Assembly (NCBI RefSeq): GCF_003074055.1
Contig: NZ_CP029043.1
Location: forward strand, 6,998,501-7,062,500
Reading direction: 5' to 3'
Source: Streptomyces nigra
Lineage (GTDB): Bacteria > Actinomycetota > Actinomycetes > Streptomycetales > Streptomycetaceae
DNA length: 64,000 nt
The stretch's first letter is position 1; every line of letters starts with the position of its first letter. The notes under the pieces were generated by a model that saw nothing but the letters and a program-made list of their open reading frames with translations, did not search any database and was not told the origin of the DNA. Position numbers and translations under genes: made by a program. Positions 811-16,716 of this stretch are shown here, in pieces.

Positions 811-3800
811 ATGCCTGCGCACGAGTCCCCGAAGCAGTTCCCCGATCCGCCCCCGCGCACCGCGCAGGACGTCCGGGCCTGGCTGGAGTCGGCCGTCGCC
901 CAGGTGACCGGACTCGACCCGGACATCGTCGACCCCGACCGGCCGCTCGCCGAACTGGGTCTTGGATCACGGCAGTTGGTGGCCCTGGCCGCCGACCTGT
1001 CCGCGCTCACGGGCCGCACTCTCGACCCCTCCCTCGTCTTCGACCACCCCACGATCGCGGAACTCGCCGAAGCCGTCCTCGCGACCACCCCTGAGGTTGC
1101 CGTCGCGCCCCAGGACCCCGGCGGCCCCGCCCCGCACCGGTCCGACGACATCGCGATCATCTCCATGGCCTGCCGGCTGCCCGGCGCCGACGACCCCGAC
1201 GCGCTGTGGCGGCTCCTCGACGAGGGCCAGGAGGCCGTCGGGGACGCGCCGGCCGGCCGCTGGGACACCCGGGACCTCTACGACCCCGACCCGGAGGCGA
1301 CCGGCAAGGCGTACTCCCTGCGCGGCGGCTACCTGAGCGACATCGACCGCTTCGACGCCGCGTTCTTCGGGATCTCCCCGCGCGAGGCCGCCGCCATGGA
1401 CCCCCAGCAACGGCTGCTGCTGCGCACCGCCTGGGAGGCCGTCGAACGCGCCGGCATCGTCCCCGCCACCCTGAACGGCAGCTCCACCGGCGTCTACGTC
1501 GGCCTCTACGACGGCGGCTACCTGGCCACGGCCGGCCTCGGTCAACTCGACGGCCACGTCGGCACCGGCACCGCGCCCAGCGTCGCCTCCGGCCGCATCG
1601 CCTACACCCTCGGCCTGCGCGGACCCGCGGTCACCGTCGACACCGCCTGCTCCTCCTCGCTGGTCGCCCTGCATCTGGCGGCACGCGCGCTGGCGGGCGG
1701 CGAGTGCGACCTCGCGCTGGCCGGCGGCGCCACGCTGCTGCTGACGCCGCGCGGGCACGTCGAGTTCAGCCGGCTGCGCGGGCTGTCGCCGTCCGGGCGG
1801 TGCAGCGCCTTCTCCGCCGACGCCGACGGTGTCGTCTGGGCGGAGGGCTGCGGGGTCGTCCTCCTCAAGCGGCTCGCGGACGCCCGCCGCGACGGCGACC
1901 GCGTCCTCGCCGTCGTCAAGGGCTCCGCGATCAACCAGGACGGCCGCAGCCAGGGCCTCAGCGCCCCCAGCGGGCCCGCCCAGGAACGCGTCGTACGGGC
2001 CGCGCTCGACGCGGCCGGGCTCCGGCCGCACGACCTCGACCACATCGAGGCGCACGGCACCGGCACCCCGCTCGGCGACCCCATCGAGGGCCGCGCCCTC
2101 GCCGCCGTCTTCGGCCCGGACCGCCCCGCCGGCCGGCCCCTCGGCATCGGGTCCCTGAAGTCCAACATCGGGCACACCCAGGCCGCCGCGGGCATCGCCG
2201 GCGTCATCAAGACCGTGCTGGCGCTCCAGCACGAGCGGATACCGGCGTCCCTGCACGTCGCGACGCCGACCGAACGGATCGACTGGACGCACGGCGGACT
2301 GCGCGTCCTCGACACGGCGCAGCCCTGGCCCCGGGACGCCGGACGGGTGCGGCGCGCCGGAGTCAGCGCGTTCGGCATCAGCGGCACCAACGCCCACGTC
2401 GTCCTGGAGGAGGCCCCCACCACGGCCGAGGAGCCCGGGCCCGCCACCCCGCCCTGCCCCGTCCTCCTCCCGCTGTCCGCGCGCGGCCTCCCGGCGCTCC
2501 GCGCCCAGGCCGCCCGTCTGCTCGACCACCTCCAGGACCGCGAGCTGCCTCTGCCCGCCGTCGCCGCCACCCTCGCCCACCACCGCACCCACTTCGAGCA
2601 CCGGGCCGTCGCCCGGGCGGACGGCCGGGACGGCCTGCTGCGCGCTCTGCGCGCACTCGCCGAGGGCACACCCGACGACGACCTCGTCACCGGCCCGCCC
2701 CACCCGGCCCGCACCGGCAAGGTGGCCTTCGTCCTCCCCGGCCAGGGCGCCCAGTGGCCCGGCATGGCACGCGATCTCCTCGACCACGACCCGGTGTTCG
2801 CCGACGAACTCGACCGCTGCGACGCCGCCCTGCGCCCCTTCACCGGCTGGTCCGTGACCTCCGTGCTGCGCGGCGACCCCGCGGCCCCGGACCTGGACCG
2901 CGTCGACGTCGTCCAGCCGGTGCTGTTCGCCGTCATGGTGTCCCTGGCCGCCGTGTGGCGGGCCCGCGGCGTCCACCCGGACGCCGTCGTCGGCCACAGC
3001 CAGGGCGAGGTCGCCGCGGCGTGCGTCGCCGGCGCCCTCAGCCTCAACGACGCCGCCGCCGTCGTCGCCCTGCGCAGCCAGGCCCTGACCGGCCTGTCCG
3101 GCACCGGCACCATGGCCGTCGTCGCGCTGCCGCACACCGAGGTGGAGCGCCGGATCGCCGGCCAGGACGGCGAGCTCACCGTCGCCGCCGTCAACAGCGC
3201 CCGCTCGACCGTGGTCTCCGGCGCCGTCGACGCCGTACGGACGCTGGTCGCCGGACTGGAGCGGGAGCAGGTCTTCGCCCGCGTCCTCGATGTCGACTAC
3301 GCCTCCCACAGCGACCGGGTCGAACCCGTCCGCGCCGCCGTCCTCGACGAACTCGACGGCGTGCTCACCCAGCCCACCGCCGTCACCTGGTACTCCACGG
3401 TCACCGGCGAGCCCGTCACCGACGAACTCGAAGCCGACCACTGGTACCGCAACCTGCGCGAACCCGTCCGCTTCGCCCCCACCGTCGAGCGCATGATCGC
3501 CGACGGGTACCGCTGCTTCCTCGAACTCGCCCCCCACCCCTCCCTGCTGACCGCCCTCAACACGATCGACGAGGACCTCGTGACGGTCGGCTCGCTGCGC
3601 CGCGACGAGGACGGCCCCGCCTGCCTGGACCGCGCCACCGCCACCCTTCACGTCCACGGCCACCGCCTCGACTGGCGCCGCCTCGCGCCGCCCACCGCCC
3701 CCGTGGACCTGCCCACGTACGCCTGGGACGAGCAGCGGCACTGGATCGAGGCGGCAGGCCCCGTGGAAGGGCAGGGGCTCTTCGACCGGGCCGCGCACCC

Positions 3801-16716: not shown

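What the first reader, a model, noticed from the sequence alone, without database searches (positions are those of the whole stretch)
811..16716. PKS ending in condensation plus FkbH domains, followed by carrier-thioester reductase
Seen: ACP-KS-AT-DH-KR-ACP-KS-AT-DH-KR-ACP-C-FkbH on one chain, then carrier-TR on the next. FkbH proteins load glyceryl units from 1,3-bisphosphoglycerate (established for FK520 and related pathways). I infer that the condensation domain acylates a glyceryl unit on the reductase's carrier and that reduction releases a glycerol-linked or hydroxy-aldehyde lipopolyketide. I do not know a described system with this order.
Basis: partly seen in the sequence, partly recalled or inferred. 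Interest (0 to 1): 0.85.

Follow-up and report, generated by a model that had tools for sequence, protein, structure and literature searches.

The report
Foxicin-type polyketide gene cluster core
The finding is the core of a gene cluster of the published foxicin type: a fatty-acid-primed assembly line whose last domains look set to attach the chain to a glycerol-derived unit and release it by reduction, although how this leads to foxicin is not understood.

Summary
Window 811-14289 encodes ACP-KS-AT-DH-KR-ACP-KS-AT-DH-KR-ACP-C-FkbH; 14353-16716 encodes ACP-thioester reductase (TR) plus an unnamed C-terminal domain. The order is not new: it is that of FoxBII and FoxBIII of the foxicin cluster, published in 2017 (PMC5318452). 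The producer's own cluster was in the collection; its five core proteins are 80, 74, 77, 87 and 80% identical to the window's, in the same order.

Two published labels do not hold on sequence: FoxBI ('A domain') is a fatty acyl-AMP ligase, FoxBIII ('PCP-TE') is ACP-TR.

C and FkbH matches precede ACP-TR in 69 of 69 loci with enough upstream DNA; a hydrolase with a Cys nucleophile follows in 79 of 79. The cassette ends several PKS layouts in seven named genera.

Likely mechanism, inferred, as in BurF of malleicyprol: FkbH loads glyceryl on the reductase's carrier, C O-acylates it, TR releases an acyl-glyceraldehyde or alcohol. Against it: foxicin A shows an amide and no glyceryl unit. A new member of a known kind.

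The parts
1..686 (+). 3' part of the fatty acyl-AMP ligase gene (575 aa; whole gene window -1041 to 686); FoxBI homologue
   Evidence: 80.0% identical to FoxBI
811..14289 (+). PKS ending in C-FkbH, 4492 aa; FoxBII homologue
   Evidence: 74.4% identical
853..1095 (+). loading ACP1
   Evidence: motif GLGSRQL; position also matched in relatives
1144..5760 (+). module 1: KS-AT-DH-KR; AT motif YASH; DH motif HxxxGxxxxS
5920..6120 (+). ACP2
6193..10818 (+). module 2: KS-AT-DH-KR; AT motif FASH; DH motif HxxxGxxxxP
11128..11400 (+). ACP3
   Evidence: GLDSLML
11515..12681 (+). condensation domain, HHAVGDL
12706..13254 (+). linker before FkbH; in the place of the NEX region described for FkbH proteins (not compared with it here)
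13258..14214 (+). FkbH domain, TIGR01686, DGDET and SCR motifs
14353..16716 (+). ACP-TR-barrel protein, 787 aa; FoxBIII homologue
   Evidence: 77.3% identical
14539..14733 (+). carrier domain with Ser93
14983..15909 (+). thioester reductase domain, TIGR01746
15913..16713 (+). C-terminal domain without a family; model shows eight strands and helices
16713..17852 (+). ABH1, alpha/beta hydrolase with Cys148 nucleophile, 379 aa; FoxEI homologue
   Evidence: 87.3% identical
17917..18696 (+). ABH2, alpha/beta hydrolase, 259 aa; FoxEII homologue
   Evidence: 79.5% identical

Best explanation
The window holds the five-gene core of a foxicin-type cluster. Shown by sequence: gene order, domain order, intact motifs, orthology to the fox genes. 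Inferred: (1) the FAAL activates a short acid as its AMP ester and loads it on ACP1. (2) Two KS-AT-DH-KR modules extend it; DH1 has the HxxxGxxxxS motif that the foxicin authors tie to a beta,gamma double bond, so the chain is probably foxicin's 2,4,6-trimethylhepta-2,5-dienoyl group. (3) FkbH takes 1,3-bisphosphoglycerate, removes the phosphate and loads glyceryl on Ser93 of the reductase protein. (4) The C domain moves the chain from ACP3 to a hydroxyl of that glyceryl unit, making an ester. (5) TR reduces the thioester and frees an O-acyl-glyceraldehyde, or the glycerol ester after a second reduction. (6) The C-terminal domain and the Cys hydrolase hold, rearrange or transfer the freed product. 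In the foxicin producer the acyl group ends up as an amide on an aminoquinone; acyl transfer in step 6 is my guess for how.
For: Domain order and motifs. Orthology to fox: five proteins in order at 80.0/74.4/77.3/87.3/79.5%; same AT motifs and same class of DH1 and DH2 motif; the producer's genome shows one FkbH match only; single-crossover disruption of foxBII abolished foxicins (PMC5318452, text part 3). FAAL rather than amino-acid A. TR rather than TE. C and FkbH matches in 69 of 69 loci and ABH1 in 79 of 79. Catalytic residues kept across relatives. Precedent: BurF C-T-Red makes an ester and then an aldehyde in vitro, with a C motif HHxxxDx (PMC12304814, text parts 1-3).
Against: Foxicin A, the only product tied to this architecture, carries the chain as an amide on a benzoquinone and no glyceryl unit, so an ester is at most an intermediate there. 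No gene for nitrogen or quinone supply was found conserved with the core. FkbH substrate, carrier target and bond type are untested. The C motif lacks the usual Gly, and the C subtype was not resolved: its best PDB sequence relatives include ordinary peptide-forming C domains. ABH2 has no match in 28 of 78 relatives with 3 kb downstream, so it is not essential to the type.
Confidence: 0.5

Rival explanations
1. Published foxicin scheme: FoxBI activates a non-proteinogenic amino acid, which is linked to glyceryl on the FoxBIII carrier; the C domain joins the polyketide to it as an amide; a TE releases it and a ring forms.
For: Foxicin A has an acyl amide and the cluster was tied to it by disruption of foxBII (PMC5318452).
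Against: FoxBI scores 422 bits with FAAL_FadD32 against 142 with the amino-acid adenylation model; FoxBIII passes the thioester-reductase cut-off and no thioesterase family was reported for it. The same holds for the window.
Confidence: 0.1
2. The C domain acts as a plain transfer domain: it hands the chain from ACP3 to a free amine (the aminoquinone), while FkbH, carrier and TR make a separate glyceryl-derived piece.
For: It explains the amide of foxicin A directly; the C domain's PDB relatives by sequence include peptide-forming C domains.
Against: C and FkbH lie on one chain and the carrier-TR follows in all 69 testable loci, which suggests one line; no amine source was found conserved with the core.
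Confidence: 0.15
3. As the best explanation up to the ester, but TR carries out two reductions and the glycerol ester (a monoacylglycerol-like lipopolyketide) is the end product in strains with the bare core, such as the window. This is closest to the first reader's idea.
For: No homologue of foxA or of the frames around foxGI-GIII was found near the window core; TR domains are known to make alcohols as well as aldehydes (stated in PMC12304814).
Against: Two- and four-electron TR domains cannot be told apart from the evidence here; the constant Cys hydrolase suggests a further step.
Confidence: 0.2

Closest known systems
Foxicin (fox) cluster of Streptomyces diastatochromogenes Tu6028 (KT440882; PMC5318452)
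   Same: Same five core genes in the same order, same domain order, 74-87% protein identity, same AT motifs and same class of DH motifs
   Different: No homologue of foxA, foxGI or the frames around foxGII-III was found from window -47 kb to +64 kb; product of the window unknown; the published TE and A labels read as TR and FAAL
BurF of malleicyprol biosynthesis (PMC12304814)
   Same: Lipopolyketide with two extensions, C domain with HHxxxDx, an FkbH-derived NEX region, carrier and terminal reductase; ester then aldehyde shown in vitro by its authors
   Different: C-NEX-T-Red on one chain without a full FkbH; its hydroxy acid is loaded by BurJ/BurH; its beta-keto chain closes to a butenolide. 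Not compared by sequence here
Vioprolide and cystomanamide FkbH modules (PMC8949500, passage)
   Same: FkbH loads glyceryl on a carrier; in vioprolide a FAAL starts the line and a C domain makes the fatty acyl-glycerate ester
   Different: FkbH stands in place of an A domain in an early NRPS module; no reductive release from the glyceryl carrier is described in the passage seen
S. coelicoflavus 'oxazolomycin-like' cluster (PMC5932044, Table 5, passages)
   Same: KS/ACP-C/FkbH (1,752 aa) beside ACP-TD (842 aa); L043 here is a like case, with DH, carriers, KS, C and FkbH and no AT match
   Different: No AT in the modules listed; its own sequence was not compared here
Tetronate FkbH systems (tetromadurin Mad7/Mad8, PMC7489565, passages)
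   Same: FkbH is proposed to make glyceryl-S-ACP from 1,3-bisphosphoglycerate
   Different: A FabH-like enzyme joins glyceryl and chain and releases it; no C domain and no TR in that step

Membership tests
foxicin-type (fox) cluster core | foxBI, foxBII, foxBIII, foxEI, foxEII homologues adjacent and in this order | tested here: met
   80.0, 74.4, 77.3, 87.3, 79.5% identity; the paper gives 73-96% for other strains
foxicin-type (fox) cluster core | FoxBII domain order ACP-KS-AT-DH-KR-ACP-KS-AT-DH-KR-ACP-C-FkbH | tested here: met
   Tu6028 shows the same order
foxicin-type (fox) cluster core | DH of module 1 with HxxxGxxxxS | tested here: met
   window HTVHGHTVVS, Tu6028 HTVFGRTVVS; of 14 further loci 12 end in S, one in C, one in P
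foxicin-type (fox) cluster core | accessory foxA and foxGI-III near the core | tested here: not met
   no match at E <= 1e-5 within -47 kb to +64 kb. The paper itself says accessory genes differ between strains, so this bears on the product, not on the core
foxicin-type (fox) cluster core | makes foxicins | not testable with these tools
   no metabolite data for this strain
FkbH glyceryl transferase/phosphatase | TIGR01686 above cut-off, HAD DxDxT motif, Cys of SCR | tested here: met
   (that this Cys is the transfer residue is recalled, not tested)
FkbH glyceryl transferase/phosphatase | uses 1,3-bisphosphoglycerate and loads glyceryl on a carrier | not testable with these tools
   needs an in vitro assay
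terminal thioester reductase (TR) domain | TIGR01746 above cut-off, GxxGxxG and YxxxK | tested here: met
fatty acyl-AMP ligase (FAAL) | closer to FAAL than to amino-acid A domains | tested here: met
   FAAL structures up to 498 bits; 442 bits FAAL_FadD32 against 140 amino-acid adenylation; the FAAL models' own equivalog cut-offs are not reached
BurF-type ester-forming C and reductive release module | HHxxxDx C domain followed by carrier and reductase | tested here: met
   (carrier and reductase on the next protein, FkbH in between)
BurF-type ester-forming C and reductive release module | sequence kinship of C and NEX to BurF | not tested
   the BurF sequence was not fetched
ester-forming (SgcC5-type) C domain | groups with ester-forming C domains in a tree | not tested
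   only a PDB sequence search was run

The most novel reading that the evidence does not exclude
C-FkbH, ACP-TR-barrel and a Cys-nucleophile hydrolase are one portable release cassette fitted to several kinds of PKS, with and without built-in AT domains, in at least seven actinomycete genera. It caps chains as O-acyl-glyceraldehyde (or glycerol) esters, which the barrel and the Cys hydrolase pass to an acceptor. The published foxicin route would then be wrong at both ends, and the window strain, with the bare core, would make the parent compound without the quinone.
Probability: 0.35. Interest if true: 0.62.

Novelty: new member of a known kind. Interest (0 to 1): 0.36.

Why it matters
Foxicin-type cassettes are common: the reductase's C-terminal domain, which marks them, was found in 45 of 391 genomes of the genus, and genome papers name such clusters after the one reference (passages). 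The biosynthetic scheme behind that reference rests on two domain labels that sequence does not support. Correcting them (FAAL start, reductive release) changes what product to look for, and makes an open point testable: whether FkbH, an ester-forming C domain and a reductase release polyketides as glyceraldehyde or glycerol esters. The clade-wide Cys hydrolase and the unnamed barrel domain are unexplained parts.

Tried and rejected
Novel order: rejected, since PMC5318452 describes it. Searches pairing FkbH with thioester reductase missed that paper, which calls the domain TE; it came up.

Frame 16631-17890 as the next gene: rejected as a shadow frame; the gene is 16713-17852. The 4684-aa minus-strand frame 967-15021 I take for a shadow of the PKS. 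My GC-based gene caller picked the wrong strand for FoxEI, put right, and miscalled parts of the foxGII-III stretch, so I repeated that comparison with all 62 frames of 100 aa or more: one weak match, to the 131-aa transporter frame.

Conserved accessory genes that would supply nitrogen or a quinone: looked for downstream (81 stretches) and upstream (16 stretches). No biosynthetic family recurred beyond the core in the families listed; those shared are genomic neighbours of a few strains. In one search the FAAL is often cut by the stretch end, so its count there says nothing.

C-terminal (barrel) domain: no Pfam or NCBIfam family above cut-off. Foldseek found nothing at E <= 0.001; VIA-align gave only Z up to 9.1 (rmsd 3.4, 113 aligned) with small barrels of unrelated proteins. 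No family is named. Its tie to GMC oxidoreductases rests on one good match (E 6e-7 among 273 frames) and two weak ones (0.005, 0.02), all three proteins having GMC domains. L198, the fourth locus fetched, gave no barrel match and was not tested for GMC.

Control: 8 ordinary TR loci carry no C, FkbH, barrel or ABH1 match; their flanks are only 1.5 kb, so a more distant C-FkbH would be missed.

Phthoxazolin paper (PMC5764310, passages): FkbH and reductase do not occur in its text; no precedent.

Full report
WHAT IS THERE. Pfam and NCBIfam give ACP-KS-AT-DH-KR-ACP-KS-AT-DH-KR-ACP-C-FkbH on the 4492-aa protein and ACP-TR on the 787-aa protein. The genes are tightly packed: a FAAL gene ends at 686, the PKS starts at 811, the reductase at 14353, an alpha/beta hydrolase (ABH1, 16713-17852) overlaps the reductase stop, and a second hydrolase (ABH2) lies at 17917-18696.

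THE FIRST GENE IS A FAAL. It matches PDB FAALs at up to 498 bits, McyG at 176 and chains named amino-acid adenylation at 166 or less. It scores 442 bits with the FAAL_FadD32 model against 140 with the amino-acid adenylation model.

THE SAME SYSTEM IS PUBLISHED. Greule et al. 2017 (PMC5318452; passages, text parts 3 and 4 of 7) list foxBI 583 aa, foxBII 4807 aa with the identical domain order, foxBIII 945 aa, foxEI 378 aa and foxEII 259 aa. They report loss of foxicins on single-crossover disruption of foxBII, and like clusters in 21 more Streptomyces strains. A scan of named genomes with the reductase family returned, as L101, 'Streptomyces sp. Tue6028', the producer. Its genome shows one FkbH match. 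Its region reads 583, 4869 (from the first start codon), 945, 378 and 259 aa. Against it the window's five proteins are 80.0, 74.4, 77.3, 87.3 and 79.5% identical. The AT motifs (YASH, FASH) and the unusual DH1 motif HxxxGxxxxS, which the paper links to foxicin's beta,gamma double bond, are shared. So the window carries a foxicin-type core and probably makes the same acyl chain (inference).

WHERE THE PUBLISHED LABELS FAIL. FoxBI of the producer scores 422 bits with FAAL_FadD32 and 142 with amino-acid adenylation. FoxBIII passes the thioester-reductase cut-off (243 bits, cut-off 213) and no thioesterase family was reported for it (NCBIfam at E <= 1e-5, Pfam at E <= 0.01). The paper's scheme needs an amino-acid A domain and a TE; the sequences support neither.

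HOW CONSTANT THE CASSETTE IS. The scan matched 164 stretches, 119 encoded a relative, and the tool kept the best 80. Of these 80 loci 68 are Streptomyces, 7 Nocardia, and one each Amycolatopsis, Kitasatospora, Actinacidiphila, Actinomadura and an unnamed actinobacterium. Rhodococcus pyridinivorans plasmids carry the cassette too, which makes seven named genera. Of 69 loci with at least 4.5 kb upstream of TR, 69 have C and FkbH matches. Of 79 with at least 1.3 kb downstream, 79 have ABH1. Of 78 with at least 3 kb downstream, 50 have ABH2. Motifs hold wherever covered: HHxxxD 69 of 69 (one of 70 not covered), DxDxT 70 of 70, SCR 69 of 69 (one of 70 not covered), carrier Ser 71 of 71, TR Ser and YxxxK 80 of 80, ABH1 Cys 79 of 79. 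In a sample of the genus, 45 of 391 genomes have the marker domain; in a sample of the order, 7 of 60, all in the window's genus.

IT ENDS DIFFERENT ASSEMBLY LINES. One search examined 20 loci. In 14 of the 19 genus loci the PKS has the two-module fox layout, in 12 of them on one uninterrupted frame; L039 and L055 are broken into several frames. In L053 and on the Rhodococcus plasmid the FAAL is fused to the PKS. L050, L051 and L052 end longer lines with three or more KS matches. L043 has DH, carriers, one KS, C and FkbH and no AT match, like the AT-less 'oxazolomycin-like' line tabulated with KS/ACP-C/FkbH beside ACP-TD in S. coelicoflavus (PMC5932044, passages). The Amycolatopsis gene (6708 aa) has further modules in front.

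TWO EXTRA PARTS. The reductase protein ends in a domain of about 267 residues without a family. Its model (mean pLDDT 79, pTM 0.71) has eight strands at 62-198 and helices; no clear structural relative emerged. ABH1 is modelled better (mean pLDDT 82, pTM 0.86) and resembles gastric and lysosomal acid lipases. Its nucleophile is Cys148, with His354, and an Asn (321) sits at the usual acid position; all three are invariant in 34 sequences. Their roles are read from position; no geometry was measured. Such a Cys fits acyl transfer, as in PHA synthases (recalled), which it matches only weakly (17 bits, cut-off 623). Outside the cassette, ABH1's nearest relatives were in five genomes; of four loci fetched, three have a GMC oxidoreductase alongside, whose C-terminus resembles the barrel domain clearly once (E 6e-7) and weakly twice. 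I infer that barrel and Cys hydrolase may serve lipid alcohol or aldehyde redox enzymes more widely.

MECHANISM. FkbH is held to make glyceryl-S-ACP from 1,3-bisphosphoglycerate in tetronate pathways (PMC7489565, passages; OzmB, cited in PMC5318452, was not read). BurF shows that a C domain can join a lipopolyketide to a carrier-bound hydroxy acid as an ester, and that a terminal reductase then frees an aldehyde (PMC12304814, text parts 1-3 of 4); its authors trace a region of BurF to FkbH proteins. The window has these parts with a complete FkbH, so an O-acyl-glyceraldehyde or glycerol ester is the simplest first product. BurF-type ring closure needs a beta-keto ester and is not expected, because module 2 carries KR and DH.

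WHAT DOES NOT FIT. Foxicin A is 2-hydroxy-3-acetylamino-5-acylamino-1,4-benzoquinone. Its acyl chain matches the PKS; its ring and two nitrogens do not follow from the core. No further biosynthetic family was found conserved with the core, and no homologue of foxA, foxGI or the foxGII-III frames lies within -47 kb to +64 kb of the window. Either the producer adds the quinone by other genes, perhaps by acyl transfer from the ester, or the model is wrong for the last steps.

VERDICT. Observation confirmed; the chemistry idea is reasonable and untested; the novelty claim is refuted, since this is a new member of a published cluster type. Added here: the FAAL and TR assignments for the fox cluster, the constancy and portability of the cassette, and the Cys hydrolase and barrel.

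Noticed in passing
13.3 to 25.1 kb upstream of the window (genome 6,973,434-6,985,229; L002:2434-14229): A 3931-aa PKS/NRPS gene with two AMP-binding, two condensation, KS, AT, KR and three carrier domains. It fits the extra A-PCP-KS-AT-KR-ACP-C-A-PCP-C gene that PMC5318452 reports upstream of fox in S. curacoi, S. regalis and Streptomyces sp. JHA19.
   Followed up: partly
window 20308-25112: GlpD-like glycerol-3-phosphate dehydrogenase, TetR regulator, FAD-linked oxidase and YegS/Rv2252-type lipid kinase side by side, a few kb from a glyceryl-using PKS. 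The oxidase family and a GlpD-like frame each recur downstream in 5 of 81 stretches, so they are probably clade neighbours only.
   Followed up: partly
window -6131 to -1928: P450, small GTPase, short frame, roadblock-like protein and sensor kinase in a row (a 'conservon'; name recalled). Members recur upstream of the core in 5 or 6 of 16 stretches.
   Followed up: no
L196, L197, L199: GMC oxidoreductases with a barrel-like C-terminus beside a Cys-type alpha/beta hydrolase of the ABH1 family; a possibly general, unnamed pair.
   Followed up: partly
L035, L036: On Rhodococcus pyridinivorans plasmids the cassette is followed by ccrA, and in L036 also by two glycosyltransferases, which may mean ethylmalonyl-type extenders and a glycosylated product.
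   Followed up: no
L043: A C-FkbH | ACP-TR cassette behind a line with DH, four carrier stretches and one KS but no AT match, in a genome (G067) that also has a fox-type copy.
   Followed up: partly
L039 and L055: Two relatives have the PKS split over frames (L039 between KS2 and AT2; L055 in C, FkbH and TR), from decay or sequencing error.
   Followed up: no
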